Assembly: GCA_964006375.1 (NCBI GenBank)
Contig: OZ023263.1
Coordinates: 138,960,173 to 139,024,172, forward strand
Direction of reading: 5' to 3'
Source of the DNA: Tillus elongatus
Taxonomy: Eukaryota; Arthropoda; Insecta; Coleoptera; Cleridae
Length of the DNA: 64,000 nucleotides
Each line of letters begins with the position of its first letter. Position 1 is the stretch's first letter. Below, piece by piece: positions 8,225-63,904 of this stretch. Position numbers and translations under genes: made by a program. The notes beneath the pieces are model-generated. The model did not search any database. It saw only the letters and a program-made list of their open reading frames with translations, and was not told the origin of the DNA.

Positions 8225-8328
8225 TTTAGAATAAGAAAATGAACTTCCGCTACAACGTCTGTTATTCTATTATGTTAGTACACTTCATGCACTTGATACT
8301 ACCCGCAAATTGTATTACATAAAGCGCC

Positions 8329-8342: not shown

Positions 8343-8605
8343 TGTTGAAAATTGGATTGTTTACAATTTTAGCGGGGTTTACTTCTATAATAACTAAATG
8401 AACACGTCTGATCATTTAATAACACACACGTTATCACCATTTATTATTGTATATGTCTGTTTACATTTTGTGACAAGAATGACACTTAAGGCTAATGACA
8501 AGTGTGACATATGGTACATGAACAGAATAGCTTGGTAATTGTAACACTGTTGACAGTGGCGCGTATATTTAAAAATGTCATGTTCGTTTCAGATTACCTT
8601 CAACA
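8343..8605 (-). repeat. copia 5' LTR
   Basis: Direct repeat of 3606-3868, bounded by TGTTGAA and TTCAACA. It holds the promoter for the - strand transcript by family rule; I did not identify a distinct TATA box. Confidence 0.93.
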
Positions 8606-21703: not shown

Positions 21704-22505
21704 CCCACAGCACCCTCCACTCAAATATACAATATTCTAAGCCTGTCTCTTTAGCCCAATTAGGTGAGGATCGCAGACTCATGGAGGGTTCTGTCTGTGG
21801 ATCTCCAAAAAATATTAGACTGGGGAAGTAGAAATCTTGTACAATTCAACCTCACCAAATCACAGTCTTGGTTTCTTTCTCATAAGAGATACACCAGCCT
21901 TAGACCCATCACAATAAACAACCAAGTTATTCAAAGTAATGAGTCCTTTTCACTTGTTGGCATTTCTGTGTATCGAAATCTCAATTGGCACCAACAAGTC
22001 ACATCAATTGCAGAAGCGGCTGCTAAGAAATTAGGTTTCCTCTCCCGGGCGCGCAAATACTTTTCACCAGCTAATCTCTATACCTTATATACTTCACAAA
22101 TAAGACCAAACCTCGAATACTGCTGCCACATCTGGGGTTGCCCACCGAAGTGCCGTTGGTGACCTCTCTCTCTTTAATAGATATCTGCACGGGCACTGCT
22201 CAGAGTGGAGCTTTCTTCCATAGTTCCTCCACCTGCTGCCCCCAACAGATCTACCAGGGGGAACGGAGCGAATGCACCCTTTTACTGTCCAGGTCACCAG
22301 GCATAGAACATCTTGTTATGCCCGCTCTTTTGTCCCGAGGACTTTCAAGTTGTGGAATTCCTTGTCAGCACATGTTTTTTCTTCTCCCCCGAACCTTCAA
22401 GTCCAGAATTAACGAGTTGCATCTTTCCTCCTTGTCGACACCCACGGTACAATAGTATTTAGGCTGTAAGCCCTCGTGGTGTGTTGTTGAATTTAAAAAA
22501 AAACA
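21704..22505 (+). mobile_element. 5'-truncated CR1/Jockey-type LINE fragment
   Basis: The fragment begins inside the RT (STLHSNIQ-like) and continues through VDLQKILDWGSRNLVQFN, LNWHQQVTSIAEAAAKKLGF and IRPNLEYCCHIWG. A small deletion near 22135 removes part of the thumb. The C-terminal region and the 3' UTR (GGCTGTAAGCCCTCGTGGTG) are followed by an A-rich tail. It belongs to the same family as the - strand LINE at 55625-57665. Confidence 0.82.

Positions 22506-30948: not shown

Positions 30949-31036
<88 letters not shown>
30949..31036. repeat. (TA)n microsatellite
   Basis: TA array directly before the LTR-like segment and the Polinton-like element. A second TA array (40602-40733) lies on the far side. 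Confidence 0.95.
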
Positions 31037-31040
<4 letters not shown>

Positions 31041-31176
31041 ACGTTCTATGGGGTTCTGGATTTGCTGACTAACAAAACACAGCTTTTCAAACTACTATTT
31101 TATTATAACCAAGTATTTTCCAACACCAGTATCAACGAAAATATTTCTCTCTCTTACTAAATGTCCATACAACTAT
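31037..31176 (+). repeat. possible solo LTR, left piece (split by Polinton-like element)
   Basis: It starts TGTTACGTTCTATGGG straight after the TA array and runs to the 6-bp target duplication. The continuation at 40293-40601 ends ACAAATGTAAC against another TA array. TGTTAC and GTAAC at the outer ends would fit gypsy-type LTR termini, with a total length of about 448 bp. There is no internal confirmation. Confidence 0.35.
31171..31176. repeat. 6-bp target-site duplication (left)
   Basis: AACTAT, identical to 40293-40298. Six-base duplications are the rule for Polinton/Maverick integration. Confidence 0.85.
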
Positions 31177-31822
31177 AGTAGATAGTGGGACACCTGGGCT
31201 CATCCCCTCCACTTTTTACTGCGCATGCGCGAGTCATCATGCGCATGCGCTGACCTGCGCAGACCTGTGACAGTTGACAGCTGACCTGTCAGATTTGACA
31301 GGTGTCAAATGTCACTGACCTGACAGCTGTCAGCTGTCAGCTAACCTGACAGCTGTCAACGTCAGCTGTCACCTGACCTGACATGTGTCAACGTCAAATG
31401 TCACCTGACCTGTCAGATGACGTCACAAGCATTCCAAGATGGCTGACCTGTCATAGACAGCTGCAACCCCGGGTTCTCTCTATGGAACTAACCTGTGATG
31501 ACGTCACAAGCATTCCAAGATGGCTGACCTGTCATAGACAGTTGCAATCCGGGTTCTCTCTCTATGGAACTAACCTGAGATGACGTCACAAGCGTTCCAA
31601 GATGTCTGACCTGTGTGTCCATAGATATCTACAAGTCAGGTTAGCTCTCCATGTGTGTTTGTCTGATTGTTTATTAAGGTTATGTATTTGTTTATTAAGG
31701 TTATGTTCGCTCACGTGTCATCTGTTTGTTTATTAAGGTTATGTTTGTATTTGTTTATTAAGGTTATGTTCACACACGTGTTGATTACCAGTCATATGAT
31801 TGTTTGTTAAGGTTATGTATTT
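31177..31822. repeat. left terminal inverted repeat of Polinton-like element
   Basis: About 646 bp matching the inverted sequence 39647-40292. Paired coordinates always sum to 71469 at the points checked, so there are no net indels, and the stretches I compared were identical. The repeat contains GCGCATGCGC palindromes, several GACAGCTGTC palindromes, three CRE-like TGACGTCA sites and AAGGTTATG-type short repeats. Confidence 0.93.
31417..31650 (+). repeat. tandem 81/82-bp units with CRE-like sites in the TIR
   Basis: TGACGTCA occurs at 31418, 31499 and 31581, each followed by CACAAGC, TTCCAAGATG and TCTCTATGGAAC-type sequence. This gives about 2.8 tandem units of 81-82 bp. The right TIR carries the mirror image at about 39819-40052. 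TGACGTCA is the canonical CREB/ATF site, so a promoter or enhancer role is possible but inferred. Confidence 0.7.
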
Positions 31823-31963
31823 TGTTTATTAAGGTTAGGTGTTCGTAAACACAGCTGTTTGGTTTGTTTATTGTGTTGTTGTTGTTGTTAAGGTGTATTG
31901 AAGTTTGTTAGGGTATTTCGTTTTTGGCGGGAAATTTGAATTTGTTTGAAAATTTCTGTCTGT

Positions 31964-32067
31964 TGTGTCCAGTGATATGACTCATTGAGCTAGAGAATAT
32001 TCTATTTGTAAAGTTGTAGAGTGTAGAGAATATTCTCTAGCTCGATGGGAGACATCTGTTGGACACA
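31964..32067. repeat. internal stem-loop near the left TIR
   Basis: Arms of about 40 bases run from TGTGTCC to GAGCTAGAGAATATTCT and back (AGAATATTCTCTAGCTC to GGACACA), around a loop of about 21 bases. It lies just inside the left TIR. Confidence 0.75.
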
Positions 32068-32160
32068 GTCATTCGGTTTAGTCACACACACACATACATA
32101 TATGAGGAAGATATATTGAGCGGGTAATTTAAAATTTTGAATTTAATTTGAAATATGATT

Positions 32161-32254
32161 TTTGAAAGAAAAGCGTTCGCCTGAAATTAGATTGAATTAG
32201 ATTCGAACCCCCAACCATACAGCTTACTAAGATATGCAAACGTCCCTAAACCGA
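32161..32254 (-). repeat. subterminal block shared with the right arm (tRNA-like)
   Basis: Inverted partner of 39366-39460: both have TTGAAAGAAAAG, TTCGCCTGAA, a TTCGAACCC/TTTGAACCC segment and GTCCCTAAACC. On the - strand the GGTTCGAATCT part resembles a pol III B box. Further partners lie deeper (32779-32845 with 39133-39190), so the arms extend as imperfect inverted repeats beyond the 646-bp TIR. Confidence 0.6.
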
Positions 32255-33180
32255 TTATGCTATTCAGACATACGATGAAAGTTTGTTATCAGTGGGTATA
32301 TATAAAACAAAAACCTGTTACATAAAACGAGTTTATGAGGGTGCTGAGTTTGTGTGTGTGGGCAAAGGTGGTATCTCTATTACATTCCAATTTGAATAAT
32401 AGGAACTGTAATGTTAAAAACAATTGTTTATATTTTATAGTAAAAAGAAATTTAAAAGACGTTCCAATTTACCTATCTAATATCATTTTAATAACAAAAA
32501 ACGTTTGAAGTAAACTATATCAATAAGAAAAACGTATTTACATCTAGATATGTTAATGAGATTATTTTAATAGCCTAATAAAACTCGGGGACTTGGTTTT
32601 ATTGCCGTCGTGTTTGTTTATGTTAGTGTGTTTGTATTTTGAATGAATGAATCTAAATTTATATAGGGAGTGATCAAAAACACACAAGTAACAAAACTCG
32701 ATTTAAAACAACTAAATTAACTTTGATATACGAGGATTGTTTGATAAGTAATGTTTGTATGTAAACATAAATAATATAATAGTATACTTACATACAGCAA
32801 GAGACGTCATACTTGTTTCACGGCTTAGCACACACTAACGTATGTTGAGGTCTTGAATGGGGGCGCTTATAGAAATAACACAGTTGTTTAATGACATCCA
32901 CTTGAACCAAACAAAACATATAGACGCTGTTGTTGATTGTTAACACACACACACACACACGTCATGACAGCTCGAAGTCTTTGCTTAGACTGACAGAGCT
33001 GTGTAATAAAAGACAGACAGACAATTGATTGCCCAACAAGTATCATATAGAACCTTGCTTGAGCTTGTACAGCTGTTTAACAAACACGTCATGACAGCTC
33101 GAAGTCTTTGCTTAGACTGACAGACAGAAAGGGGTTAATAAAAATGCAACAAAATAAAAATAAAACAACTGTTTTACATA
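32255..33180. other. noncoding left arm of Polinton-like element
   Basis: No gene is seen. It contains a short CA run (32944-32960) and a direct repeat of TCATGACAGCTCGAAGTCTT with TTGCTTAGACTGACAG at about 32962 and 33087. Confidence 0.6.
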
Positions 33181-33242
33181 CAATAAAAATTTATTAGGAT
33201 TAATTAAGTTGTACATATTGATACATAAATGACATACTATTA

Positions 33243-34448
33243 TTACATAATGGCTCTAACGATGCCCGTTAGAGGTTTATATTCCATTACACTGTCATGA
33301 ATAACCAGACAATAAACACGAGTATTTTTTGGGAAGTTGGCGTGACTCATAAACTCCACCTTAATGTCCACCGTTGAAGACTTGATTGACTCGTTCTGGT
33401 GCTGACAGTCAATCACAAATAGAGCTCTGTCTTTAAACTCGTCATAATTCAAGATAGGCTCCGACATGTTTTTATAACAGAAGCTTTTTTGAAAATCTGT
33501 ATACATGTTATAGGCTTCTGCATATTTCGATTTCTCAAAATCCATATTCATAGATTCATAAGGGTAGCATTCTGAATTTAGAAACACTCGAAGGTCCATC
33601 ATACCAATGTTATCGAAATAGTCTGACCTCTTCTTCACGTTATCCTTACGATCTGTTTGAAATGCTATAATCACATATCGAGGTCTTTCCAAGTTGGTTG
33701 CAGTTTTAACAGCCCACACATCTCTGTTGATATCTCTGAGTGCTGGTAACTCGTATATGTCCCATTTACGGTATGCGAGAAATATAGAGGTGTCTTTGGC
33801 TATTTTATCCATCAGTTCCAATTTCATTTTATCATTGGGAAATACATGTTTTACCTTTAAAAACATATTGGTTACGGTAATTTTTGCTCGTGCCGTACCT
33901 GTGCTGTAATAGCCATTGGAATCGTTTCGACTTCTTGTAAAGCGGAAAGTATGTTTGCCACAGAGAACTCCTTTGAAATGATGAAAGAAACTGAAGAGGA
34001 ACCAGACAGGTATGAGCATGTGAAACTTGTTATCATTTAAGGTGATGTGCTCCGACGACACATTCAGACCGGCGTTGCTAAGAGATTGGGCTTCATTCTT
34101 ACTGAACGATAGCAGACTTTTGATGATGGTTGTGGTGTATGGGTCTCGCACTCGTTCCACTTCCTTGTTATTTAACTCATAGGTCATTGATTCAAACAGA
34201 GCTGCTCCTCCATTATTTGACAGATAACAAGCACCAGTGGCATTTTGGATTGCTACAGGTTCCAGAGCACCTTCGATTATTAGAGCTGACTCGGCCAGAC
34301 ATACGAACGCATCTTGTTGGTTGATGGCTATTTCAATTTCATCGCTGTTACCAAACGATTTAGTTGGTGAATAGTAAGAGCGCAGCTCTTCTCGATCGAT
34401 GCCATCATCAAACACGGGTTCTTTGAATATTTCTAGTTTTGACGACAT
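33243..34448 (-). CDS. double-jelly-roll major capsid-like protein
   Basis: A - strand frame of 401 residues counted from the internal ATG at 34448 (MSSKLEIFKE). A further 31 residues upstream are open (to 34541), but the internal start fits the family better because the upstream part is basic and unrelated-looking. The product reads as the double-jelly-roll-like capsid family found in Polinton-like and adintovirus-like elements of invertebrates. Visible hallmarks are an N-terminal YYSPTKSFGNSDEIEI segment, a central KWDIYELPALRD region, RPRYVIIAFQTDR, and the C-terminal NSECYPYESMN and CLVIHDSVMEY. It would form the hexagonal capsomers. The frame is intact, and AATAAA follows on the - strand at 33190-33195. 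Family assignment is from memory of these motifs without alignment. Confidence 0.8.
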   Translation of the reverse strand: MSSKLEIFKEPVFDDGIDREELRSYYSPTKSFGNSDEIEIAINQQDAFVCLAESALIIEGALEPVAIQNATGACYLSNNGGAALFESMTYELNNKEVERVRDPYTTTIIKSLLSFSKNEAQSLSNAGLNVSSEHITLNDNKFHMLIPVWFLFSFFHHFKGVLCGKHTFRFTRSRNDSNGYYSTGTARAKITVTNMFLKVKHVFPNDKMKLELMDKIAKDTSIFLAYRKWDIYELPALRDINRDVWAVKTATNLERPRYVIIAFQTDRKDNVKKRSDYFDNIGMMDLRVFLNSECYPYESMNMDFEKSKYAEAYNMYTDFQKSFCYKNMSEPILNYDEFKDRALFVIDCQHQNESIKSSTVDIKVEFMSHANFPKNTRVYCLVIHDSVMEYKPLTGIVRAIM

Positions 34449-34570
34449 GATAACCCAGGCTTTGCAGGAACTCAATATTATCGGGACGAAGCGTACCCTT
34501 TGACGTGTCTGACTCAACTGAATTTGATGTGGTAGATGCACTTGCTTTTATATCCTTGAAGACCAACATA

Positions 34571-35281
34571 CTAAGCAACTTTTATAAGTTTCAAGCGAAC
34601 AGACACCTCTTCACCTTGAAAGTTGACAGGAACTGAATCTTGGTCGACGATGTCGATGCTTATATTGGAAATCTCTTGCTTGTTCACCGGCAAGTAAATT
34701 AAATTTTTAGGTTCTATGTCGATTGCGTAGCCAGGATCAACCATCGGAGCAAACTCATACAGCGTATGTGAGGGTTGTCCGTTATAATAGGAACCAGACA
34801 CGATATTGGTTTCGATGCGAATCTGTCTAACATCCACTATATCAACAGGTAAATCAGATTCATAAAAGGTGTCCGGCTGAAGAACTTGTTTTGAAAAGCC
34901 CAACATTCGCCCAATCGAACCATCAAATTCAAAACTGACATTTGTATAACACTTTAGTCTGCATTTGATGGTGTTCGGATTAGGTCTCAGAATCAGAGCC
35001 TGTTGCTTTTGTTCGTGTGTTGCTGTAGCACCAACAAGTTCATTTTGAAGTAACTCTTCCAAGTGTGTTATTTCATAAGCACCGGTGGGTATCGTGATGG
35101 TTCGCCAACCGGTTCCTTCTTTTACATGAAATTTGTTTTTACCTTCATAGATGTTGGGTATGTTGTTGTAGGTGTGAAAGCCTATCAAGGCAACAGCATA
35201 ATTACCATCCAAAACAATTGGTGGATGGTAGTCTGACGACAGATGGGAGCTGCGGTCTTTCAACACAAAGGTGTGCGCCAT
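34571..35281 (-). CDS. penton-like minor capsid protein
   Basis: An intact 236-residue - strand frame with ATG at 35281. The N-terminus AHTFVLKDRSS followed by IVLDGNYAVALIGFHTYNNI is the pattern of penton-like (single jelly-roll) minor capsid proteins of Maverick and adintovirus-type elements. The remainder is rich in beta-strand-like sequence with no transmembrane segment. It lies 122 bp upstream of the major capsid ATG and 32 bp downstream of the pVI-like gene on the same strand, forming a three-gene capsid block. In the virion it would close the five-fold vertices. Confidence 0.72.
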   Translation of the reverse strand: MAHTFVLKDRSSHLSSDYHPPIVLDGNYAVALIGFHTYNNIPNIYEGKNKFHVKEGTGWRTITIPTGAYEITHLEELLQNELVGATATHEQKQQALILRPNPNTIKCRLKCYTNVSFEFDGSIGRMLGFSKQVLQPDTFYESDLPVDIVDVRQIRIETNIVSGSYYNGQPSHTLYEFAPMVDPGYAIDIEPKNLIYLPVNKQEISNISIDIVDQDSVPVNFQGEEVSVRLKLIKVA

Positions 35282-35313
35282 GACTGATACACACAGGCTA
35301 CTGTTTCAGTCTT

Positions 35314-35634
35314 TTATTGCATTGGTTTTTGCAGATACAACCCATAACCGTAGCGCTGTTTCTTGAGATACATGCCTTTGCCCAGTCTCTTGCATTTTGG
35401 CTTAAATTTCAAGCCACTCCCTCTCCTACCCATCGCGATGGCTTCCATTGTTTTGTTGTGTCGTTCTTCCTCCTCTAGTTTCTGTTTCGCAGACTTGGCA
35501 TCGTTCACGGCTTTGGCAATACCTGCAGCACCGCCACCCAGAGCTCCTAGTGCTGACAGCCCACCAAATATAAGAGGCAACAACGGAAGGAAGCCTCCAC
35601 TTTTAGGTATTGGAATAACTCGAGGTTTCTGCAC
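35314..35634 (-). CDS. pVI/pX-like small capsid-associated protein
   Basis: A 106-residue - strand frame. Residues about 14-46 are hydrophobic and rich in Gly and Ala (LPLIFGGLSALGALGGGAAG), followed by an amphipathic charged helix (KSAKQKLEEEERHNK). The C-terminus is basic with Gly/Tyr repeats (GKGMYLKKQRYGYGLYLQKP). A short membrane-active helix plus a basic GxGLYL-type tail is the usual look of the pVI/pX-like proteins encoded next to capsid genes in Maverick, adintovirus and Polinton-like elements. The stop codon overlaps an AATAAA signal (35313-35318 on the complement). Confidence 0.65.
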   Translation of the reverse strand: MQKPRVIPIPKSGGFLPLLPLIFGGLSALGALGGGAAGIAKAVNDAKSAKQKLEEEERHNKTMEAIAMGRRGSGLKFKPKCKRLGKGMYLKKQRYGYGLYLQKPMQ

Positions 35635-35981
35635 ATTCTTACGTCCACCAATGTTTCTAACAATTGTATGAGCTATATCAAATACGGCGTTCGCTGTTGG
35701 AATAAGGTTTCTATCTTTTATAACTTCCTCAATCAGACTTAGTATGTTTTTAAATGGGGACCTTCTTCTTTGGCTTCGAGTTGATTACATAAAACCCCTC
35801 ATCAAGTTTTCTGTTAACTTTCATGGTGTTTGTAACGCTAGCAACGTTTCAGCAAAACCTGTATCTGTCTTTGTTAATAACAACCCTCACTCTGTGACAC
35901 CAACATGCATACTGACTGGGTGTCTCACTTGCATTCATATATATATACACACCCAAAAAATATAGTTTAGTTTAAGTTAAG
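35635..35981. promoter_or_regulatory. divergent intergenic region between the two gene blocks
   Basis: 347 bp lie between the - strand capsid block and the + strand ATPase gene, so promoters for both directions are expected here. TATATATATAC at about 35939 lies 43 bp before the ATPase ATG and could serve as a TATA box. A + strand stretch at 35744-35965 is open but has no recognisable feature. Confidence 0.4.
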
Positions 35982-36677
35982 ATGCGTACCAGCAAACACG
36001 CTTCTGCCTTACCCATTACAAATATAGACGATGTTGTTACGGACACAGCTCAACAACAACTGAGGCATGGTCCTCTCTTTCCAAACACCGTTCGCTGTAT
36101 CATATGTGGTCCGAGTGGGTGTGGTAAAACTAATGTCATGCTGAGTTTATTGTTTGAAGCAAACGGTTTAAAATTTGATAACGTGTATGTGTATTCAAAG
36201 TCTCTGTATCAACCGAAATACAAGATGTTAAAGGAGGTGATGAATGCAACAAAAGGTGTTGGTTACTATCCTTATAGAGAAAACGATGAAATATTAGATC
36301 CGGCAGATGCCAAGGACAACTCTGTGTTTATATTTGATGATGTAGCTTGTGACAAACAAGATAAAATAAGAGCATACTTCAGTATGGGCAGACATAAGAA
36401 TATTGATTCATTCTATCTCTGTCAAACATATACACGAATACCCAAGCATCTGGTACGTGACAACACCAATGTTATTGTGTTATTCAAGCAAGATGAAACC
36501 AATTTAAAACATGTGTACGACGATCATGTAACCACCGATATGGACTTTAAACAATTTAAAACTATCTGCCACCAATGCTGGAAAGATAATAAGTATGGTG
36601 TGTTGGTGATTGTGAAGGAAAACGATGTACACAAAGGTCGATATAGAAAAGGATTCGATAGATATATATTATTCTAA
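35982..36677 (+). CDS. A32-type (FtsK/HerA superfamily) genome-packaging ATPase
   Basis: An intact 231-residue frame. Walker A is GPSGCGKT at residues 43-50, Walker B is VFIFDD at 115-120, and QTYTRIPK (148-155) matches the polar sensor region that follows Walker B in this superfamily. The length fits the short packaging ATPases of Polintons, adintoviruses and virophages, which pump DNA into preformed capsids. It is the first gene of the + strand block. The 13-bp minisatellite begins 20 bp after its stop. Its presence beside capsid genes argues that the element was, or derives from, a virion-forming virus. Confidence 0.87.
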   Translation: MRTSKHASALPITNIDDVVTDTAQQQLRHGPLFPNTVRCIICGPSGCGKTNVMLSLLFEANGLKFDNVYVYSKSLYQPKYKMLKEVMNATKGVGYYPYRENDEILDPADAKDNSVFIFDDVACDKQDKIRAYFSMGRHKNIDSFYLCQTYTRIPKHLVRDNTNVIVLFKQDETNLKHVYDDHVTTDMDFKQFKTICHQCWKDNKYGVLVIVKENDVHKGRYRKGFDRYILF

Positions 36678-36696
36678 CAATGGTAGACAGGACAGT

Positions 36697-37363
36697 CAGC
36701 TGTCTAACACAGCTGTCATACAGGTGTCTAACACAGGTGTCTAACACAGCTGTCTAACACAGCTGTCTAAGACAGCTGTCTAAGACAGCTGTCTAACACA
36801 GCTGTCTAAGACAGCTGTCTAACACAGCTGTCTAACACAGCTGTCTAAGACAGCTGTCTAACACAGCTGTCTAAGACAGCTGTCTAAGACAGCTGTCTAA
36901 GACAGCTGTCTAACACAGCTGTCTAAGACAGCTGTCTAACACAGCTGTCTAAGACAGCTGTCTAACACAGCTGTCTAAGACAGCTGTCTAAGACAGCTGT
37001 CTAACACAGCTGTCTAAGACAGCTGTCTAAGACAGCTGTCTAACACAGCTGTCTAAGACAGCTGTCTAAGACAGCTGTCTAACACAGCTGTCTAAGACAG
37101 CTGTCTAAGACAGCTGTCTAACACAGCTGTCTAAGACAGCTGTCTAACACAGCTGTCTAACACAGCTGTCTAAGACAGCTGTCTAAGACAGCTGTCTAAC
37201 ACAGCTGTCTAAGACAGCTGTCTAACATAGCTGTCTAACATAGCTGTCTAAGACAGCTGTCTAAGACAGCTGTCTAAGACAGCTGTCTAACACAGCTGTC
37301 TAAGACAGCTGTCTAACACAGCTGTCTAACACAGCTGTCTAACACAGCTGTCTAACACAGCCA
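36697..37363 (+). repeat. 13-bp palindromic minisatellite (about 50 units)
   Basis: About 50 head-to-tail units of GACAGCTGTCTAA or CACAGCTGTCTAA fill this segment; only the first base alternates in most units, with a few TACAGCTGT or ACAGGTGT variants at the edges. Each G-type unit contains the 10-bp palindrome GACAGCTGTC, which also occurs repeatedly in the TIRs. No reading frame through it looks real. Confidence 0.95.
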
Positions 37364-37446
37364 GACATCGTGATAAATAAGAAGGCATGTACCGTGACAG
37401 AGTCAGTATATGTTAAACCACCACACAACCTGTATCGCTCAAACAA

Positions 37447-38616
37447 ATGATTAGACCGACTGGTAACACCAAAAACAGTTGTAGCACAATGGAAGTGTTG
37501 GGTAAGGAAGAGCGAAAAGTTAAGAAAAGGATTTTACAACTTGCTGACAATATTCGAAAAAAACATTTAATGCTTAAACTTAACAGAGCTGAGAATGATG
37601 ATGCTCTGCAACGTTTATATAAACCTCTTGTTGAGCCCCTAAGTGAAATATCTAAAAACACAGCAGCACTGCAGCAGCAACAGCCATCGCAACCACCAAA
37701 GGTTGAACAAATCAAAGACGAAGTCGATATACCAGAAACGAAACCCCAAGTACAGTTCCTTAAAGACCATGAAGTTTTTGAAGCTGAACCAAGGGAAGAG
37801 GCTGAGGCGACAAGTTCCGATGAGGACATCCCAACATTTGAAGAGCTTGAGGCAGACCTACAAACTGTCACAACCAACCCTGCATATCAAGAATTTTTGG
37901 AGCAATATCCTGACCGAGTTCGATATTATGTAGACAAGTATTTTACTGAACCACCGAGGCTTGCTACTATTGATCAAACGTATGGTGCTCGCTACGCTAA
38001 AGATACTGGTAGCTGGAGTCTTGGCAACAAACACTTGGACTTTACTGATGCTGAGATTCAACTGGGCCAAAGGAGATACCCGCAAACACAAGGTTTGCTA
38101 GAATTGATATTTATGAAAACACCTAGAGGGTATACCTATGATGATCTTCAACACTATAGAGATATTCTAGAAGCAACTAGTGTTCATAAAATGAACTATG
38201 ATCCTAACGCACGAACCAAGGGTTGTTCCTCTGAAAAGTATCTGACTCTAATAAAACCAGTGATAAATCCACGAGGTCGTAGATCCTCAACACCTCAAGG
38301 TTTTGGTTACACCTACGAGGAAGACGATGACGACAGCACCGACAGACATCTTAACAAAAAACAAAGGACTGAACTTAAAACTCAGAGTGATAAGAGCAGC
38401 GATAGCAACGGCATGAGCCCTAACAACAACATCAGCACCAACAACTATATGATACAAAATAACAAACAAATAGCCTATGTGTATTGGAATGACATAAACG
38501 AGTTGGTTGACAGACTTAGACTTTTAGTGGCTTCCCAAGTTGCAGGTAATACTGCTCATAACAACGAAATTCAGTCAATCTTGGAAGAACTAAAAGAAGC
38601 TAGTGTTATCACCTAG
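37447..38616 (+). CDS. DUF8207-like protein of Polinton-like elements
   Basis: An intact 389-residue frame; the start may instead be the ATG at 37489 (MEVLGKEERK). It has an N-terminal basic coiled-coil-like segment (residues 15-65) ending in LYKPLVEPLSEI, and a Q/P-rich and acidic linker (75-140). A globular core (about 150-275) has YVDKYF, YGARYAKDTGSW, LGNKHLDF, GLLELIFMKTPRGYTYDDL and LIKPV. An Asn/Ser-rich spacer and a C-terminal helix follow. This arrangement is what I recall as DUF8207, a family of unknown function that travels with double-jelly-roll capsid genes in arthropod elements. Function unknown; a structural or scaffold role is only a guess. AATAAA lies at 38748-38753. Confidence 0.65.
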   Translation: MIRPTGNTKNSCSTMEVLGKEERKVKKRILQLADNIRKKHLMLKLNRAENDDALQRLYKPLVEPLSEISKNTAALQQQQPSQPPKVEQIKDEVDIPETKPQVQFLKDHEVFEAEPREEAEATSSDEDIPTFEELEADLQTVTTNPAYQEFLEQYPDRVRYYVDKYFTEPPRLATIDQTYGARYAKDTGSWSLGNKHLDFTDAEIQLGQRRYPQTQGLLELIFMKTPRGYTYDDLQHYRDILEATSVHKMNYDPNARTKGCSSEKYLTLIKPVINPRGRRSSTPQGFGYTYEEDDDDSTDRHLNKKQRTELKTQSDKSSDSNGMSPNNNISTNNYMIQNNKQIAYVYWNDINELVDRLRLLVASQVAGNTAHNNEIQSILEELKEASVIT

Positions 38617-39646
38617 TAAGCCCACAGCCATGAAGAGACACCGACGACAACAACAACAACAGCACCAACGCAACACTGAACCATCTAATGTTAATAATTC
38701 TATAAATGTATTCCAACAAAGAGTTTACATACTTGTACTTAGAATCAAATAAAAGTCTTTGTTAAAATTAATGTGTTTTTATTTTGTAATACAATTAAAA
38801 AGTATGTCTTAAAGCAATAATATCCTGAACAAACTTATCTTGTGGTACATCTGCTAAAATACATGGATGATGTCATACTTCTAATGACTGTATTCTAGAC
38901 AAGCTCAAACACGAATAATGTGGGGTTATTGAACAGATATAACACAAGGTCATCAACTGACAGGTTGTTTACCTTTAAGAGGGCCTCTCTCTTGTGTATA
39001 TTAAACAGATACACAGACAAGCTCAAACACGATCAAGGTTAACAACTGTAAAACGTTGTTTATCCTTTGTAAGGCCTCTCTCTCTTACATCAGTTTGTTT
39101 CCTCAATACAAGAGACAGAGACACTTGTTCAGTATGTGTTAAGTCGTGAAACAAGGATGACGTCTCTTGCTGTATGTAAGTACACTCTTCTTATTATGTC
39201 TGTTTGCATTCAAATAACAAATACAAACATAACCTTACTAAACAATCAGATGATTGGTAATCAACATGTATACAAACACCTAACCTCATATGTCAACAAC
39301 AACTGGCTTTGTTTTATATATACAACAGCGAACAAACTTTTAACGTGTGTGTCTGTGGAGCTATTGGTTTAGGGACAGTGTATATCTGAGAAAGCTGTCT
39401 ATGGCCGATTCGAGGTTCGTGGGTTCAAATCTAAGTTCAGGCGAATGCTTTTCTTTCAAATACACATGCATCTGTCAGTCTAAGCATGGTTGGAAAATAA
39501 GAAAACTAAAGAGCTGATTGCCTATTACAACAGTCTGCTAAAGGAAGAGTCAGGGTATCTGAATACCGATACCCTCAATATTTCAACTGAGGGAGCCCAC
39601 TTAGAGTTATCGCCAGGCTTATTATGTCTGTTTGCATTCAAATAAC
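38617..39646. other. noncoding right arm of Polinton-like element
   Basis: No gene seen. It contains two diverged copies of a segment (39189-39265 and 39617-39690: TTATTATGTCTGTTTGCATT, then AATAACAAATAC, then GGTAATCAACA), repeats of GACAAGCTCAAACACGA (about 38898 and 39017), and the inverted partners of left-arm blocks (39133-39190, 39366-39460). Confidence 0.65.
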
Positions 39647-40292
39647 AAATACATAACCTTAACAAACAATCATATGACTGGTAATCAACACGTGTGTGAA
39701 CATAACCTTAATAAACAAATACAAACATAACCTTAATAAACAAACAGATGACACGTGAGCGAACATAACCTTAATAAACAAATACATAACCTTAATAAAC
39801 AATCAGACAAACACACATGGAGAGCTAACCTGACTTGTAGATATCTATGGACACACAGGTCAGACATCTTGGAACGCTTGTGACGTCATCTCAGGTTAGT
39901 TCCATAGAGAGAGAACCCGGATTGCAACTGTCTATGACAGGTCAGCCATCTTGGAATGCTTGTGACGTCATCACAGGTTAGTTCCATAGAGAGAACCCGG
40001 GGTTGCAGCTGTCTATGACAGGTCAGCCATCTTGGAATGCTTGTGACGTCATCTGACAGGTCAGGTGACATTTGACGTTGACACATGTCAGGTCAGGTGA
40101 CAGCTGACGTTGACAGCTGTCAGGTTAGCTGACAGCTGACAGCTGTCAGGTCAGTGACATTTGACACCTGTCAAATCTGACAGGTCAGCTGTCAACTGTC
40201 ACAGGTCTGCGCAGGTCAGCGCATGCGCATGATGACTCGCGCATGCGCAGTAAAAAGTGGAGGGGATGAGCCCAGGTGTCCCACTATCTACT
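39647..40292. repeat. right terminal inverted repeat of Polinton-like element
   Basis: Inverted copy of 31177-31822, ending CCACTATCTACT before the AACTAT target duplication. Confidence 0.93.
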
Positions 40293-40298
40293 AACTAT
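40293..40298. repeat. 6-bp target-site duplication (right)
   Basis: AACTAT, matching 31171-31176. Confidence 0.85.
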
Positions 40299-40870
<572 letters not shown>

Positions 40871-55624: not shown

Positions 55625-57665
55625 TATTTATTTTTATTTCAACAACACACCACGAGGGCGTACAGCCTAAATACTATCGTACCGTGGGTGTCGACAAGGA
55701 GGAAAGAGGCAACTTGTTAATTCTGGACTTGAAGGTTTGGAGGTTTGGGGGAGAAGGAAAAACATGTGCCGCCAAGGAATTCCACAACTTGGAAGTCCTC
55801 GGGAAAAAAGAGCGGGCATAACAAGATGTTCGATGTTTGGTGACCTGGACAGTGAAAGGGTGCATTCGCTCTGTCCCTGGTCGATCTGTTGGGGGTAGCA
55901 GGTGGAGGAACTATGGAAGAAAGCTCCTCTGAGCAGTGCCCGTGCAGATATCTATAAAAGAGAGAGAGGTCACCAACGGCACGTCGGTGGGCAAGCGATG
56001 GCAGCCTTTGGGTGAGGGTAGGGTCACCGATGAGACGTATAGCTCTCTTCTGAATGGAGTCCAGGATAGCGAGTGTAGAAGCGGCAGCAGCACCCCAGAT
56101 GTGGGAGCAGTATTCGAGGTTTGGTCTTATTTGTGAAGTATATAAAATATAGAGATTAGCTGGTGAAAAGTATTTGCGAGCGCGGAAGAGAAAACCTAAT
56201 TTCTTAGCAGCCGCTTCTGCAATTGATGTGACATGTTGGTGCCAATTGAGATTTCGATCCACAGAAATGCCAACAAGTGAAAAGGACTCATTACTTTGAA
56301 TAACTTGGTTGTTTATTGTGATGGGTCTAGGGCTGGTGTATCTCTTATGAGAAAGAAATCAAGACTGTGATTTGGTGGGGTTGAATTGTACAAGATTTCT
56401 ACTTCCCCAGTCTAATATTTTTTGGAGATCCACAGAGATAGAACCCTCAATGAGTCTGCGATCCTCATCTAATTGGGCTAAAGAGACAGGCTTAGAATAT
56501 TGTATATTTGAGTGGAGGGTGCTGTCGTCCGTGTAACTGTGAACTGCGTTGGATGTACTAGAGAGGAGGTCATTGATATGGAGAAGAAACAAAGTAGGGG
56601 CTAAAGCTGAACCTTGACGAACTCCTGCATTATTTGGATACAGTTTAGAGGAATGGCCATCCACGACAACAGAAATGCTCCGGTTGGAGAGGAAATTTGC
56701 TGTCCACATACAGAGTTTTGGTGGTAGGCCATAGGTCGGTAGTTTATTAAGCAGTGCTGCGTGCCAGACCTGGTCGAATGCTTTGGATATGTCTAGAGCG
56801 ACAATCTGGGATTCGTCGTGTAGTTCCATAGACTTGTTCCAAGAATGGGTGACAAAGGAAAGGAGGTCGGCAGTTGATCTGCGCTGACGGAATCCATACT
56901 GCCTGTCGTGAATTAGACTGTGTTTTTCAAGAAATTTTAGTAATTCGGTGTTTATATACTTTTCCATCACTTTAGAGATGACTGAAAGGAGAGAAATAGG
57001 CCTGTAGTTGCTAGGAAGCGCTTTCAATCCTTTCTTGGGGACGGGTTGTACTCGAGCCGTTTTCCAGTTACTGGGCAATATGCCTCTATTGTAAGATGTT
57101 TGAAACAGACGAGTCAGGACAGGAGCAAGGTTTGGTGCGCATTTTTTGAGAACAATTGCTGGGATCTCGTCAAGGCCAGAGGCTTTCCTGGTATTAAGAG
57201 AAAGAGCATCTTTTGTACCTTTTTAGTTTTGAAAATGATATCTGTCATTTTATGCGTGATATTGGGGACTGTTTGTGGTTGAACATTTGGAGGTGGGTTG
57301 AGAGTAGAATTGCCGGCGAACAACGAGGCAAAAAGTTCAGCCTTGCCCAGGGCGGTAGAAACAATTTCATCCCCTGAGACAAGAGGTGGGAACGTGCTCT
57401 TGCAGAAATTATTCCCAATAGATTTAGCAAGAGTCCAGAACGGTTTGCTGCCGCTGGAGCTTAAGAGGACTTTGTTTTTGATGTGGTTATTAAACGAGTT
57501 TTTGGCCTCAGAAAGAATGTGGATATAGCGGTTTCTTGCGTCGTTAAATGCTTGACGGTTTTCTTGACTGGGATTGTGTAGAAGCTTTTTGTGAGCTTTG
57601 ACCTTTTCAAGTCTGGCCTTGTCACAGGATTTCGAGAACCAGGGCTTTTGAGTGGCTGCAGAGGT
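55625..57665 (-). mobile_element. 5'-truncated CR1/Jockey-type LINE (same family as 21704)
   Basis: The - strand reads, from about 57665, the ORF2 linker (PWFSKSCDKARLEK, SGSKPFWTLAKSIGN) and, after frameshifts, the RT (56359-57078). The RT has LPSNYRPISLLSVISKVMEK, ALDISKAFDQVWH, GVRQGSALAPTLF and SYTDDSTL in the catalytic position. The thumb and C-terminal part (55717-56262) have LNWHQHVTSIAEAAAKKLGF and IRPNLEYCSHIWG. The 3' UTR ends in a TAAA-rich tail at 55625. A stop replaces the codon after FNPTKSQS. Confidence 0.87.
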
Positions 57666-57845: not shown

Positions 57846-58126
57846 TGTTTTATTAAATAAATGGAATTAAATTGTGCTGGTGAATAGGTATGTAGTGGAA
57901 AGAAATTGAATCGATTGATAGTAACACTTTGTTTATTAATTGTAAAAGCGATGTTCACTGTTCTGCGGTCGGAATATGAGAGAGCAAAAATGGTGATTGA
58001 TGTTACAAAATAATTATGTAGCGACTGCGCAGTATCTTGTCGTGTTGCTACTGATTTAGACAGTGTTGCCACGTTAGGCAAAATTTCAGTAAAAATAAAA
58101 TATACATAATATCAAAAGTATTAACA
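57846..58126 (-). repeat. BEL 3' LTR
   Basis: 281 bp with TGTTTTATT at the outer end and AGTATTAACA at the inner end. Confidence 0.88.
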
Positions 58127-58130
58127 TAAA

Positions 58131-58142
58131 CTCCCCCCTTTG
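58131..58142 (-). other. BEL polypurine tract
   Basis: The - strand reads CAAAGGGGGGAG four bases before the 3' LTR. Confidence 0.75.
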
Positions 58143-58274
58143 AAGGGAACCTTCAAAAGACAATAGGAAACAAGTTCATTATTCTAGTGAAATTATTACA
58201 ATAACAGAAACATAGCACTGTAAGATTAAAACAAATAATGTTAATTGTTCTTTAAATTACACACAGATAGTAGT

Positions 58275-59465
58275 TTATTTTGTGGCACTTATTTCTTCTT
58301 CAATAGGAAGTGGGCACAAATGTCTGACTGAACGCACAATAATCTTGGTTGAAGTTTTCACTTCTACCACCCTGGAGATACCATCCTTGCTGTTGAACAA
58401 TCGTACAATGCGACCCATTGGCCAGTTACATGGTGGCTGGTGATCATTTTTAATAAGAATTAGAGATCCGACCTTGACTGGATTTGTTGTATCCTTCCAT
58501 TTGTATTGTTGATGTAGTTGTGAGATATATTCTTTCGTGAATCGACCCCAAAACTCTTGGTACAGCCGTTGTATATCTTGGAATCGTGACAATCGGTTGG
58601 TTGGCAACTCTGTTAAGTCAGCATTGGGCAGCGTTGTTGTAGGGCGTCCAATAAGGAAATGGGAAGGGGTTATTGGTTGAAGGTCATTAGGATCATTTGA
58701 TAATGAATAGAGAGGCCGAGAGTTTAATACCCCTTCAATTTGTATAAGTAATGAATTGAAGTCCTCATAAACGAGTTTTTTATTAATCATCATTCTTTTT
58801 AAATGGAATTTCATACTTTTAACGGCTGCCTCCCAGAGACCTCCAAAATGAGGTGTATAAGGAGGGATAAAGTGCCATCTTATGGTATTTTGAGCAAGGT
58901 AGTCATTAATAAAATTTTTATTGTTAAATAGAAAATGGCCTAGTTCTTTTAGTTCGTTTGGAGCCCCAATGAAGGTACTGCCGTTGTCCGAATAAATTTC
59001 TGATGGCAATCCTCGCCTTGAAATAAACCTCTTGAGGCAAGATAAAAAACATTCACTCGTTAAATTGGAAACTAACTCTAAATGTACTGCCTTTGTGCAA
59101 AAGCACACGAAAACACATACATAGCCTTTCACAATTTTGGATCCTCGTCCAAATTTGTCCTTTAACAGGAAAGGACCAGCATAGTCGATACCAGTATATT
59201 GAAATGGCAGAGACGGTCTGACTCTGTTATCAGGTAGGCTAGACATTGGGTAAGTAGAGAATGAAGGATTAAATTTGAAGCAAGTCATACAAGCTTTAGT
59301 TACTTTGCGTGCTAAATTACAACCACCCACAGGCCAGTAAAATTGTCTGATTGAGGCCAAAAGTAGTTGAGGCCCTGGGTGTAGAAGTATAATATGTTTG
59401 TGATTGAAAATAAGCCTTGTAAGGACATGATTTGACATTAGAAGTACAGGATGTTTTTTATTCAT
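58275..59465 (-). CDS. BEL integrase with zinc-binding head and DUF5641 tail
   Basis: A 396-residue frame whose ATG overlaps the stop of the upstream frame (ATGA at 59462-59465). Its beginning reads NKKHPVLL, which in BEL elements lies inside the polyprotein, so it is not a natural protein start. The integrase zinc-binding head (HH..ACMTC, to residue 63) precedes a DDE core with D94 (GIDYAGPF), D160 (SDNGSTF) and E212 (GGLWEAAVKS). The C-terminal DUF5641 domain (WGRFTKEYISQL, PVKVGSLILIKND, WPMGRIV) follows. The core residues are all present. Confidence 0.88.
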   Translation of the reverse strand: MNKKHPVLLMSNHVLTRLIFNHKHIILLHPGPQLLLASIRQFYWPVGGCNLARKVTKACMTCFKFNPSFSTYPMSSLPDNRVRPSLPFQYTGIDYAGPFLLKDKFGRGSKIVKGYVCVFVCFCTKAVHLELVSNLTSECFLSCLKRFISRRGLPSEIYSDNGSTFIGAPNELKELGHFLFNNKNFINDYLAQNTIRWHFIPPYTPHFGGLWEAAVKSMKFHLKRMMINKKLVYEDFNSLLIQIEGVLNSRPLYSLSNDPNDLQPITPSHFLIGRPTTTLPNADLTELPTNRLSRFQDIQRLYQEFWGRFTKEYISQLHQQYKWKDTTNPVKVGSLILIKNDHQPPCNWPMGRIVRLFNSKDGISRVVEVKTSTKIIVRSVRHLCPLPIEEEISATK

Positions 59466-62400
59466 ATCTTGAACCTTAGTCTACCTCCTACACGGATTAA
59501 TCCGTTCTTATCAATAAATGGTGTTAAGCTAGAGAATTTATGTTTATTCGACAAGGAATGATCAGATCTCAAGGTAGTTATCACATCTGGAAAGGATTCC
59601 TTTTGCGCTAATTTAAGTAAAATTGTGTGAGCATTATCCAACTCAGAAACGGTTAATGGTCCGAATACACGGTCTCGTGATTCTTTTCTAGCATTTGTTG
59701 CAAATCTTATACAGTAACTGGTAACTCTTTGTAATTTTATAAAACTAGAAAACTTATTAAATAGTGAAAATTGTTCAACTGACGTTACATTCAATACATT
59801 CACATTAACATTACTCTTTTTCATTTCGGGTACATCGTCTGACAAATTTAGGACAGGAGGATTATTCAACAGGTGTTCGATAGAACCTGATAGAAAACTA
59901 GGGCCTTGCCACCAAAGCTTCAAGTGAATAATATTTTCTGGTAATATTCCCCTAGTAGCTATATCAGCGGGATTTTCTTTGGTGTTAATATAATGCCAGT
60001 TATTGACATCAGTAAGTGTCTGAATTTTAGAAACGCGGTTTGCAACAAACATTTGCAATAGAATAGGTTCCTTTTTAAGCCAGCATAATACAATTTGTGA
60101 ATCTGTCCAATAATAAATAGGCACCGTGAGCGAAGTAGAATCGATAATTTTTTTAATTAATTGAGCGCCTAAATGTGCAGCACATAGCTCGAGTCTAGGA
60201 ATTGTTAATAATTTTAATGGAGACACTTTGGTCTTTGAGCACAATAAATGTGCTTTAATATTCCCGTCTGGATTTATGCTTCGCAGATAGACACAACTAG
60301 CATAGGCGTATAAAGACGCATCACAAAAACAATGAATATCCAGCAAAATGTGCGTTTTACCTATGGTCATTCTTGGGATTGAAAGTTTATTTAATTCCGA
60401 CAAATGGTTATAAAATTGAGTCCATTTAATGAACAATTCTTTGGGAATTATTTCATCCCAAGAAATTTTCAATTTCCATAGCTCCTGTATTAAAATTTTT
60501 GAAATTATGACCACTGGCCCCAAAAGACCAAGCGGGTCATATATTTGAGATATAATAGATAGAACTTGTCTTTTTGTAATATTGTTATTTAATTGAAAAT
60601 TGTCAGTTTGAATTTTGTATTTTAATACATCTTGCTTACTGACCCATTGAACTCCCAGTGTTTTGAAGCTCTCGGATTCACCTAAATTTAAAATGGAACT
60701 CGGAATATTACTAGATTTAACATTCTTCAAAATGCGTTGATCACTTGAGATCCACTTCCGAAGTATGAAATTGGCCGATTTTAGGATATCAAAAATATTT
60801 TTACATCTTTCTTGTAATTCAGTAATATCATTAGAACCTGTTAAAAGGTCGTCCACGTAAAAATCATTTAAAATAGTATGAGAAGCACTAGGAAACGAAT
60901 CTTTATTTACAATTGCTAATTGATTAATGCACTTGATAGCAAGATATGGGGCTGCTGTAGTACCATATGTGACAGTGTTCAGTTGATAAGTTGACAACTC
61001 GTCACTTGTATTGTCCCTCCAAATTATTAGCTGTAGAGGTCTATGATCTTTATGCATTAAGATTTGTCTGTACATCATTGAAACGTCAGCAGATACTACA
61101 TACTTGTATAACCTGAATCTAATTAGTATGTCAAAAATATCATTCTGTACCTTAGGTCCCGCATATTGCAAATCGTTAAGAGACCACCCAGAGTCAGTGG
61201 AACAAGAGCCGTCAAATACCACCCGCAATTTTGTTGTGATACTTGACTCTTTAAATACACCATGATGTGGCAAATAGTAATTTGGAATCGGTAAATCTCG
61301 TTCATAAATTTTAGTCATGTGACCCAAATCTATATATTCACTTATAAAGGTTTTATAACTTTTATGAAAATTGGCATTGGAAGAGAATCGCCTTTCCAGT
61401 GAAAAATATCGTCGAATAGCTGTCTCTCTAGAATCTCCGAGAAGACTAGGTGATCTTTTAAAAGGGAATTTCACTACAAATTGTCCTTTATTATCCCTTG
61501 TAGTATTTTTTGCAAAGAGTTCTTCGCAATGAAGATCATCGGTTGACAAAGAAATAGGTTCGTTGATTTCATTAATTTCCCAAAATCGACGTAGTTGCGA
61601 ATCTTCAGGTACAGTTTTTGAAAAATTGCAAACAGAATTTAAAATTGAATTGGAAATTGTACCAGAAACAATCCAGCCTAGTTTCGTGTTTTGCAATATG
61701 GGACCATCGTTAGATAATTTTATTTTCCCGTCTAATAATAAATCCCAAAATAGTGATGCACCGATCAACATATCGATATCATTACATAAATAGAAATCTG
61801 GATCAGATAAACTGATGTTCGTTGGAATACTGATGCTTGATAAATTGATACTCTCTGAAGGAATGGTTGTTGTTATTACAGGTGTGACATAGCAACATAA
61901 GTGGCATTGATAATTGTTAACATTTGAATGGATAACAATTGTAGTCTTTCTTGTAAGGTTGGATACAACCTGATTGATTCCCATAATTGATAAATTGGTA
62001 GGGACCAGTTCTAAACCTAATCGTTTGCAACAATTATCACTAATTAAATTGGATTGCGCTCCCGAATCCAATAATGCCCTACATAATTGAAAATTGCCTT
62101 TATTATCTTTCACGTTAAATGTAACAGTGGATAATAGTACCGATGAATTGTAAACATCATTATTAGGTAAAAATCGATGACTTGCTTGAAATAGAACATT
62201 GGATTGATTTGAATTAGTTGTCGATTGTCTAGCTATTTGTGAATCATTAGAATGGTTAGCGTTATTATGATTACTTGATTCGTTAAAATCATAGTGAAGA
62301 AGTGTATTATGTTTTCGCCTGCATTTTCTACAGCTTCCAATATTGCATGTCTCTTTAGCATGACCAATACGCAAACAGTTTGAACACAGATTGAATGTTC

Positions 62401-63520
62401 TTACCTTGCCCCATCGTTCTTTAGTACTTAATTGTAAAAATTCTGGGCACGTATAAATAGTGTGCTCCCCCTTGCAGTAATTACATTTTAAAGAAATTGT
62501 TGTTGTTAAGTGTACTTGAGAACGAGGCTGATATTCCTTAAAACCCATATTATTCTGATGCGAGTATGGCTTATTAGTTCGAGACTGTGAATGAGGTTCT
62601 TCCATGGATTCCAGGATATCTTGCCTAGCTTTTAGAAATTCTAAGAATGCATTCAAAGTTGGTAGTTCTAAACTTGTGTGAAACTCCTTCCATTTATTTT
62701 GCGTAATTTTGTCTAGTTTATTATAAATGACATGAATAACAGTCATATCCCATAAGGAATCCTTGGAAAGACTCATCCCGTCAAGAGCCGTCAGGTGCTT
62801 TGATATTTCATCAAGCATTGTTCGAAATTGAATAAAAGTACTTTTATTAATTGAATTGATGTTAAAAATTGATTTTATGTGAGTGTCTATGAGGAACTTT
62901 TTTTTATCAAATTTATCACAAAGCACCCGCCATGCTTCTTTATAATCTTGTGATGCATCACAACCGGCAATAGTTCGCCTTGCGTACCCCTCTAAAGCAG
63001 CCTTCAAGAAATTGTATTTCTGGCCATCGTTTAAAGTTTGATTGGAATCAATAGTAGTAATGAAGCTCTTTTTAAATTCTAACCATTGTTCATAGTCACC
63101 ATTAAAAACCGGAAGTTTGATTTTCGGCAAGAGAAAATTCTGTAAAGAATTAAATGCAACATGTGTTTGAGTATTTGGATCATTAACCAGGGATGTATCT
63201 ACACTTGAGGAAGAAGCTAATTTATTATCAATATATTGCTTTAAAAATGACACTGCTTTATAGTATTTGTTTTCAAACGGTTCACGTTCGTCATAATGCC
63301 CCTCTAATTCCCCTTCATCACAATTCTGCTCTATTAACTTCTGTACCTCTTCAAAATCGGAAATTATCAGTAGACTATTTTCATACCTTAATTGAGCATC
63401 CTGAACTTCAGGCGCAGAGGTACCCACAACAATGGAAGAAATATATTTTTCAATTGTAGTTAATCTTTTTTTAATTGAAGCTCGATTTCGAGTTAATTGC
63501 TGAAGATTTACTTCCGTCAT
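59462..63520 (-). CDS. BEL/Pao Gag-protease-RT-RNase H polyprotein
   Basis: A 1,352-residue frame. The N-terminal Gag (DUF1759-like, residues about 100-300, with KLPVFNGDYEQWLEFK) is followed by cysteine/histidine knuckles (about 350-410: CNYCKGEHTIYTC, CSNCLRIGHAKETC, CRKCRRKH). The aspartic protease has DSGAQ near residue 485. RT contains LRVVFDGSCS, SADVSMMYRQI and catalytic YVDD near residue 887. RNase H starts near HCFCDASLYAYAS. It ends at TGA after VGGRLRFK, where BEL proteins normally continue into the integrase head, so a single frameshift splits the polyprotein. Confidence 0.9.
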   Translation of the reverse strand: MTEVNLQQLTRNRASIKKRLTTIEKYISSIVVGTSAPEVQDAQLRYENSLLIISDFEEVQKLIEQNCDEGELEGHYDEREPFENKYYKAVSFLKQYIDNKLASSSSVDTSLVNDPNTQTHVAFNSLQNFLLPKIKLPVFNGDYEQWLEFKKSFITTIDSNQTLNDGQKYNFLKAALEGYARRTIAGCDASQDYKEAWRVLCDKFDKKKFLIDTHIKSIFNINSINKSTFIQFRTMLDEISKHLTALDGMSLSKDSLWDMTVIHVIYNKLDKITQNKWKEFHTSLELPTLNAFLEFLKARQDILESMEEPHSQSRTNKPYSHQNNMGFKEYQPRSQVHLTTTISLKCNYCKGEHTIYTCPEFLQLSTKERWGKVRTFNLCSNCLRIGHAKETCNIGSCRKCRRKHNTLLHYDFNESSNHNNANHSNDSQIARQSTTNSNQSNVLFQASHRFLPNNDVYNSSVLLSTVTFNVKDNKGNFQLCRALLDSGAQSNLISDNCCKRLGLELVPTNLSIMGINQVVSNLTRKTTIVIHSNVNNYQCHLCCYVTPVITTTIPSESINLSSISIPTNISLSDPDFYLCNDIDMLIGASLFWDLLLDGKIKLSNDGPILQNTKLGWIVSGTISNSILNSVCNFSKTVPEDSQLRRFWEINEINEPISLSTDDLHCEELFAKNTTRDNKGQFVVKFPFKRSPSLLGDSRETAIRRYFSLERRFSSNANFHKSYKTFISEYIDLGHMTKIYERDLPIPNYYLPHHGVFKESSITTKLRVVFDGSCSTDSGWSLNDLQYAGPKVQNDIFDILIRFRLYKYVVSADVSMMYRQILMHKDHRPLQLIIWRDNTSDELSTYQLNTVTYGTTAAPYLAIKCINQLAIVNKDSFPSASHTILNDFYVDDLLTGSNDITELQERCKNIFDILKSANFILRKWISSDQRILKNVKSSNIPSSILNLGESESFKTLGVQWVSKQDVLKYKIQTDNFQLNNNITKRQVLSIISQIYDPLGLLGPVVIISKILIQELWKLKISWDEIIPKELFIKWTQFYNHLSELNKLSIPRMTIGKTHILLDIHCFCDASLYAYASCVYLRSINPDGNIKAHLLCSKTKVSPLKLLTIPRLELCAAHLGAQLIKKIIDSTSLTVPIYYWTDSQIVLCWLKKEPILLQMFVANRVSKIQTLTDVNNWHYINTKENPADIATRGILPENIIHLKLWWQGPSFLSGSIEHLLNNPPVLNLSDDVPEMKKSNVNVNVLNVTSVEQFSLFNKFSSFIKLQRVTSYCIRFATNARKESRDRVFGPLTVSELDNAHTILLKLAQKESFPDVITTLRSDHSLSNKHKFSSLTPFIDKNGLIRVGGRLRFKI

Positions 63521-63902: not shown

Positions 63903-63904
63903 AA

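What the first reader, a model, noticed from the sequence alone, without database searches (positions are those of the whole stretch)
31177..40292. 9.1-kb Polinton-like element that keeps the virion module but lacks polymerase, integrase and protease
Seen: long TIRs starting AG, an exact 6-bp target duplication (AACTAT), and open frames for a double-jelly-roll capsid, penton-like protein, pVI/pX-like protein, packaging ATPase and DUF8207-like protein. Known: Polintons/Mavericks and adintoviruses of 12-25 kb or more carry pPolB and an RVE integrase, make 6-bp duplications, and have TIRs. Inferred: this is a compact lineage or deletion derivative that is packaged and integrated in trans, a satellite-like capsid-encoding element, or it uses a host or unrecognised replication system. 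TIRs that look identical where compared, and five undamaged frames, point to recent activity.
Basis: partly seen in the sequence, partly recalled or inferred. Interest (0 to 1): 0.88.

Follow-up and report, generated by a model that had tools for sequence, protein, structure and literature searches.

The report
Capsid-only Polinton in an insect genome
A chromosome, probably an insect's, carries a recent 9.1-kb insertion of a virus-like transposon that kept its particle-building genes but lacks the polymerase, integrase and protease its relatives normally carry, so it probably borrowed another element's enzymes to move.

Summary
Window 31177-40292 is a 9,116-bp element with 646-bp terminal inverted repeats identical at 646 of 646 positions and an exact AACTAT duplication. 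It encodes a double-jelly-roll capsid protein and an A32-type packaging ATPase, a penton confirmed by structure prediction and a DUF8207-family protein. The pX/pVI-like frame has no in-frame ATG. No stop-free run over 99 codons lies in the unassigned gaps, so no intact polymerase fits. One penton relative in the same small tree group carries a weakly matched adenain-like protease segment directly upstream, so the protease was more likely lost than never present. Best reading: a non-autonomous Polinton/eupolintovirus derivative, shortened before insertion and recently copied and integrated in trans by a full-length relative. That step is inferred. Deletion after insertion, or a dedicated satellite or two-part lineage, is not excluded. 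The decisive host-genome search did not complete (11 tries). Virion genes without recognisable PolB and integrase are already mentioned in print (PMC11071296), so this is a new variant of a known kind.

The parts
31171..31176 (.). left copy of 6-bp target duplication AACTAT
31177..31822 (+). left terminal inverted repeat, 646 bp, starts AG; holds 21-32-bp CAGCTGTC-bearing repeats, an 81-bp tandem repeat and a 21-bp AT-rich repeat
32161..32311 (+). subterminal stretch, decayed inverted similarity (76%) to 39460-39308
32754..32839 (+). subterminal stretch, inverted similarity (85%) to 39214-39127
33243..34448 (-). major capsid protein, double jelly roll, 401 aa from ATG
   Evidence: PF21738 E=2.5e-77; 70 homologues E<=1e-3; start codon
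34571..35281 (-). penton protein, 236 aa
35314..35784 (-). pVI/pX-like minor virion protein frame (156 aa stop to stop); no in-frame ATG, start unknown or frame broken; named from position and composition only, no homologue search was run
35785..35981 (.). 197-bp divergent intergenic region between the leftward and rightward genes (promoters inferred)
35982..36677 (+). packaging ATPase, 231 aa, P-loop GPSGCGKT
   Evidence: Pox_A32 PF04665 E=3.6e-9
36697..37361 (+). 13-bp minisatellite, 51.3 copies, same CAGCTGTC core as TIR repeats
37447..38616 (+). DUF8207-family protein, 389 aa, long N-terminal helix, conserved middle and C-terminal parts, function unknown
   Evidence: 476 homologues, all of the 120 listed carry PF26634; model pLDDT 74.1
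39127..39214 (-). subterminal partner of 32754-32839
39308..39460 (-). subterminal partner of 32161-32311
39647..40292 (-). right terminal inverted repeat, 646 bp, identical to the left
40293..40298 (.). right copy of target duplication AACTAT

Best explanation
A non-autonomous Polinton/Maverick (eupolintovirus) derivative in an insect, probably a beetle. It lacks the replication and integration genes (pPolB, RVE integrase) and the maturation protease but keeps capsid, penton, packaging ATPase and DUF8207 genes, with a doubtful pX-like gene. Shown: boundaries, gene content, identical TIRs, target duplication. Inferred: a full-length relative in the same cell supplied pPolB (protein-primed copying from the TIR ends, which keeps the arms identical) and integrase (6-bp staggered insertion at the AG ends), so the already shortened form was the thing inserted. 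Whether it is also packaged is open.
For: Perfect TIRs and exact TSD. Virion proteins of the insect Polinton kind: DJR capsid, penton with mavirus/adenovirus fold that also matches a Drosophila-associated adintovirus 2 protein at rank 40 of the viral library (E=2.4e-6), A32 ATPase. No room or frame for pPolB, integrase or protease. P0203, in the same 8-row penton group, has a protease-like segment in the order protease-penton, which makes loss the simpler polarity. No remnant of the missing genes was recognised although the ends are too young to have diverged, which suggests that the reduction came before the insertion. Penton (2 of 46) and DUF8207 (0 of 41) agree with their families at conserved columns. 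Possible helpers exist in beetles: more than 1000 contigs of Colorado potato beetle data were assigned to Adintoviridae, with integrase, PolB and structural proteins (PMC9963324, passages).
Against: No helper or second copy was seen: the genome search did not complete, so mobility of the short form is unproven; a full-length element deleted after insertion would leave the same ends. Polarity rests on one relative, a Peptidase_C5 match below its cut-off (E=0.028, 14.6 bits against 21.3) and a tree fork under 95 in a quick tree. The capsid departs at 7 of 44 conserved columns, third highest of 54 rows, the penton end branch is long (1.06 against a median of 0.31), and the pX-like frame may be broken, so decay is possible.
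Confidence: 0.6

Rival explanations
1. A full-length Polinton inserted here and was cut down in place by later deletions (or the assembly collapsed it); the short form never moved.
For: Single locus seen; TIR and TSD do not tell which length was inserted; pX-like frame may be damaged; capsid departures 7 of 44. The minisatellite 36697-37361 and the gaps could be scars.
Against: Ends are identical over 646 bp, yet three genes are missing without recognisable remnants; one or more large losses would be needed in a short time while four frames stayed open.
Confidence: 0.22
2. A lasting satellite or two-part lineage: elements that always carry only the virion module, paired with partner elements that carry pPolB and integrase, both recognised by shared TIR motifs and packaged alike.
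For: Capsid, penton, ATPase and DUF8207 kept while the replication set is gone; penton and DUF8207 look constrained; a capsid is of no use to a pure transposon. Decayed inverted similarity reaches about 1.6 kb (left) and 1.1 kb (right) from the ends, so the five genes sit between related flanks. The CAGCTGTC core is shared by the TIRs and the internal 13-bp array.
Against: Only one copy seen; a near penton relative carries a protease-like segment; no partner was found, and none could be looked for in the host genome.
Confidence: 0.12
3. An autonomous element that replicates with an unrecognised protein (DUF8207 the only candidate) and a host recombinase.
For: The DUF8207 protein has no known function and no credible PDB match; it agrees with its family at 41 of 41 conserved columns.
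Against: No Pfam or PDB match points to a catalytic activity; nothing in my calls ties DUF8207 to replication; 6-bp duplication and AG ends fit the Polinton integrase (recalled).
Confidence: 0.04

Closest known systems
Polintons/Mavericks, family Eupolintoviridae (renamed from Adintoviridae; PMC12451622, passages), e.g. Sf Maverick 1 and 2 (PMC5803895, passages) and Drosophila-associated adintoviruses of 13.3-14.6 kb (PMC8363768, passages)
   Same: DJR capsid, penton fold, A32-type ATPase; TIRs and 6-bp duplication (typical features, recalled)
   Different: 9.1 kb; no pPolB, no RVE integrase, no protease
Capsid-less Polintons (PMC4028283, passages: nine elements without a capsid gene also lacked protease and ATPase)
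   Same: modular loss of one half of the gene set
   Different: mirror image: here the virion half is kept and the replication half is missing
Polinton-like viruses (PMC11071308, passages: mostly lack pPolB and RVE integrase and encode other replication proteins)
   Same: DJR capsid without pPolB or RVE integrase
   Different: PLVs carry another replication protein; none is recognised here
Meldviruses with adenovirus-class virion proteins but no recognisable PolB/integrase (PMC11071296, section 16 read, Figure 7 legend seen)
   Same: animal-associated virion genes without PolB and RVE integrase
   Different: the example in the legend, Meld19810, carries a primase-helicase and a tyrosine recombinase; none is recognised here
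Mavirus and other virophages
   Same: mavirus penton is the best PDB match; dependence on a helper (by analogy)
   Different: virophages carry their own replication genes and protease (recalled)
Bidnaviridae (recalled; PMC4061559 seen only in a search listing)
   Same: precedent for a split genome with a Polinton-type pPolB
   Different: single-stranded DNA, parvovirus-like capsid; no split is shown here

Membership tests
[quoted passage not shown]
   largest unassigned stretch 1420 bp with longest stop-free run 62 aa; no Pfam match in the pieces scanned
Polinton/Maverick (Eupolintoviridae) | RVE integrase | tested here: not met
   no stop-free run over 99 aa in the gaps; no Pfam match in 9 of 9 pieces scanned
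Polinton/Maverick (Eupolintoviridae) | adenovirus-like protease | tested here: not met
   no frame left for it; a protease-like segment precedes the penton in relative P0203
Polinton/Maverick (Eupolintoviridae) | double-jelly-roll major capsid protein | tested here: met
   PF21738 E=2.5e-77
Polinton/Maverick (Eupolintoviridae) | jelly-roll penton | tested here: met
Polinton/Maverick (Eupolintoviridae) | FtsK/HerA-like packaging ATPase | tested here: met
   Pox_A32 E=3.6e-9
Polinton/Maverick (Eupolintoviridae) | long TIRs starting AG with 6-bp target duplication (recalled as typical) | tested here: met
Polinton/Maverick (Eupolintoviridae) | close relatives are complete Polintons | tested here: inconclusive
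   one relative shows a protease-like segment, below Pfam's cut-off; genomic context of relatives not available; viral contigs and genome contigs held none
Non-autonomous (trans-mobilised) Polinton | same TIR shared with a full-length helper in the host | not tested
Virophage | own replication gene and protease (recalled) | tested here: not met
   no frame for either was found
Virophage | dependence on a giant virus | not testable with these tools
   none

The most novel reading that the evidence does not exclude
A two-part virus of insects: capsid-coding elements such as this one and separate pPolB/integrase elements live in the same genomes, share terminal recognition motifs (the CAGCTGTC arrays), and are replicated, packaged and integrated together, so that this is a satellite that supplies the shell instead of stealing it.
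Probability: 0.12. Interest if true: 0.85.

Novelty: new variant of a known kind. Interest (0 to 1): 0.52.

Why it matters
Some Polintons are known to lack their capsid genes and live on as transposons. An element that keeps only the particle genes is the reverse case, and if the short form moves, the capsid must be worth keeping without a replicase. That makes a question testable: do Polinton particles form and matter in living animals? It also supplies a locus with young ends for looking at helper dependence.

Full report
What is there. The element runs from 31177 to 40292 (9,116 bp). Its two terminal inverted repeats of 646 bp are identical at every position, and ungapped identity falls to 30% over the next 200 bp inside them. 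AACTAT flanks both ends. With 0 differences in 646 positions the 95% upper bound on divergence is about 0.5%; with a recalled insect neutral rate of a few substitutions per billion sites per year the insertion is younger than roughly a million years, unless the arms were converted or collapsed in assembly.

Genes. Leftward: capsid 33243-34448 (DJR-like domain E=2.5e-77; 401 aa from ATG), penton 34571-35281, pX/pVI-like frame 35314-35784. Rightward: ATPase 35982-36677 (Pox_A32 E=3.6e-9) and DUF8207-family protein 37447-38616. The capsid has 70 homologues at E<=1e-3, 30-53% identical; named ones come from beetles (Sitophilus, Onthophagus, Phaedon, Zygogramma) and ants (Monomorium, Vollenhovia). 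The penton has 146 homologues, of which 120 were listed, up to 55% identical. DUF8207 has 476 homologues; all of the 120 listed carry PF26634. The host is therefore inferred to be an insect, probably a beetle; it was not identified.

The doubtful frame. The pX-like frame is 156 aa from stop to stop but has no methionine before its conserved part. The nearest ATG upstream, in another frame, opens a short frame that ends at a stop. This may be decay, splicing or recoding. No homologue search was run with this frame or with the ATPase (the three protein searches went to capsid, DUF8207 and penton), so the pX-like name rests on position and composition.

What is missing. Unassigned stretches are 1420, 197, 769 and 1030 bp, and their longest stop-free runs are 62, 59, 35 and 99 aa; for the 1420- and 1030-bp gaps 70.5% and 6.5% of 200 letter shuffles reach as much. 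Nine of the longer frames in these two gaps gave no polymerase, integrase or protease match in Pfam; three had sub-threshold matches (CotD 0.036, DUF3920 0.034, KilA-N 0.12) that I do not credit. A polymerase gene of about 3.5 kb as in Sf Mavericks (PMC5803895, passages) cannot fit.

Polarity. P0203 joins a 98-residue N-terminal extension to a penton 52% identical to ours. Pfam places the extension weakly on adenovirus endoprotease (E=0.028, below the cut-off), and by eye it shows the H, D and C positions expected of adenain-like proteases (motif recalled; sequence). In a quick tree of 120 rows (the window and 119 of the 120 listed homologues) P0203 falls in the same group of 8 rows as the window's penton (support 88; the smallest group with support of 95 or more that holds the window has 59 rows). 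By path it is among the five nearest rows, not the nearest. So at least one near relative seems to keep the protease beside the penton, and its absence here is more simply a loss. It was the only one of the 120 listed homologues whose extension showed such a segment. The tree also gives our penton a long end branch (1.06; median 0.31).

Constraint. At columns conserved in 90% or more of the other rows the window departs at 2 of 46 (penton, 26th of 65 rows), 0 of 41 (DUF8207, 16th of 30) and 7 of 44 (capsid, third of 54). Against 16 of its closest listed homologues the capsid departs at 4 of 24 columns on which those all agree, equalled by two rows and exceeded by one. So penton and DUF8207 look constrained; the capsid is less convincing.

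Noncoding anatomy. The CAGCTGTC core occurs 8 times in each TIR, 72 times (both strands) in the 13-bp minisatellite region, 0 times in the other parts of the element that were counted, 3 times in the 31-kb left flank and 0 in the 24-kb right flank. Inside the perfect TIRs the two subterminal regions share decayed inverted similarity (85% over 88 columns, 76% over 160 columns). This suggests that longer ancestral repeats were renewed only at the ends, or that the ends were shortened. A role of the arrays as binding sites is a guess.

How it most likely works. Shown: a recent Polinton-style insertion without the enzymes that make one. Inferred: a helper's pPolB copied it from the TIRs and a helper's integrase inserted it. 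Elements with integrase, PolB and structural proteins are reported in plenty in another beetle (PMC9963324, passages), so helpers are plausible. That no remnant of the lost genes was recognised despite young ends suggests that the reduction came before the insertion, but this is not proof; deletion afterwards is put at about one in five. Whether it is packaged cannot be told.

Known or new. Polintons that lack the capsid module and keep the transposon half are published (PMC4028283, passages). Polinton-like viruses without pPolB and RVE integrase but with other replication proteins are known (PMC11071308, passages). Animal-associated virion genes without recognisable PolB and integrase are mentioned in PMC11071296 (section 16 read), with an example that has another replication set. 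By the definition of adintoviruses given there (PolB, hexon, integrase) this element is not a member, though it is built from their parts. I found no paper in the library on a non-autonomous Polinton by six such names nor on DUF8207; two key papers were not held. I rate it a new variant of a known kind.

Limits. The genome search did not answer in 11 tries, so copy number, helper and host remain unknown, and the trans-mobilisation step rests on inference.

Noticed in passing
3608-8605: Copia-like retrotransposon (named by eye) with two identical 261-bp LTRs (3608-3868, 8345-8605) and a 1374-aa open frame on the minus strand (4142-8266): a recent insertion.
   Followed up: partly
57846-64000: BEL/Pao-like retrotransposon frames (named by eye; 59462-63559 and 58275-59480, minus strand), with a 96-bp 99% repeat at 57846-57941 and 63905-64000, cut by the window end.
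   Followed up: no
36697-37361: 13-bp minisatellite of 51 units between ATPase and DUF8207 genes sharing the CAGCTGTC core with the TIR arrays; could be an iteron-like binding array or simple expansion.
   Followed up: partly
21707-22503 and 55627-56525: Inverted pair of related stretches (91-96% identical) that read as LINE reverse transcriptase by eye.
   Followed up: no
30950-31036 and about 40599-40737: Long AT dinucleotide runs lie within about 140 bp of the left end and 300 bp of the right end of the element.
   Followed up: no
protein P0203: A relative encodes an adenain-like protease segment fused or read through into the penton.
   Followed up: yes
proteins P0024, P0061, P0063, P0064: Phaedon gene models join other sequence, in two cases host-type domains (SAM, homeodomain), to the second half of a capsid protein, each starting near capsid residue 178-189; likely annotation artefacts, but the repeated junction might mark a splice acceptor in the capsid gene.
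   Followed up: no
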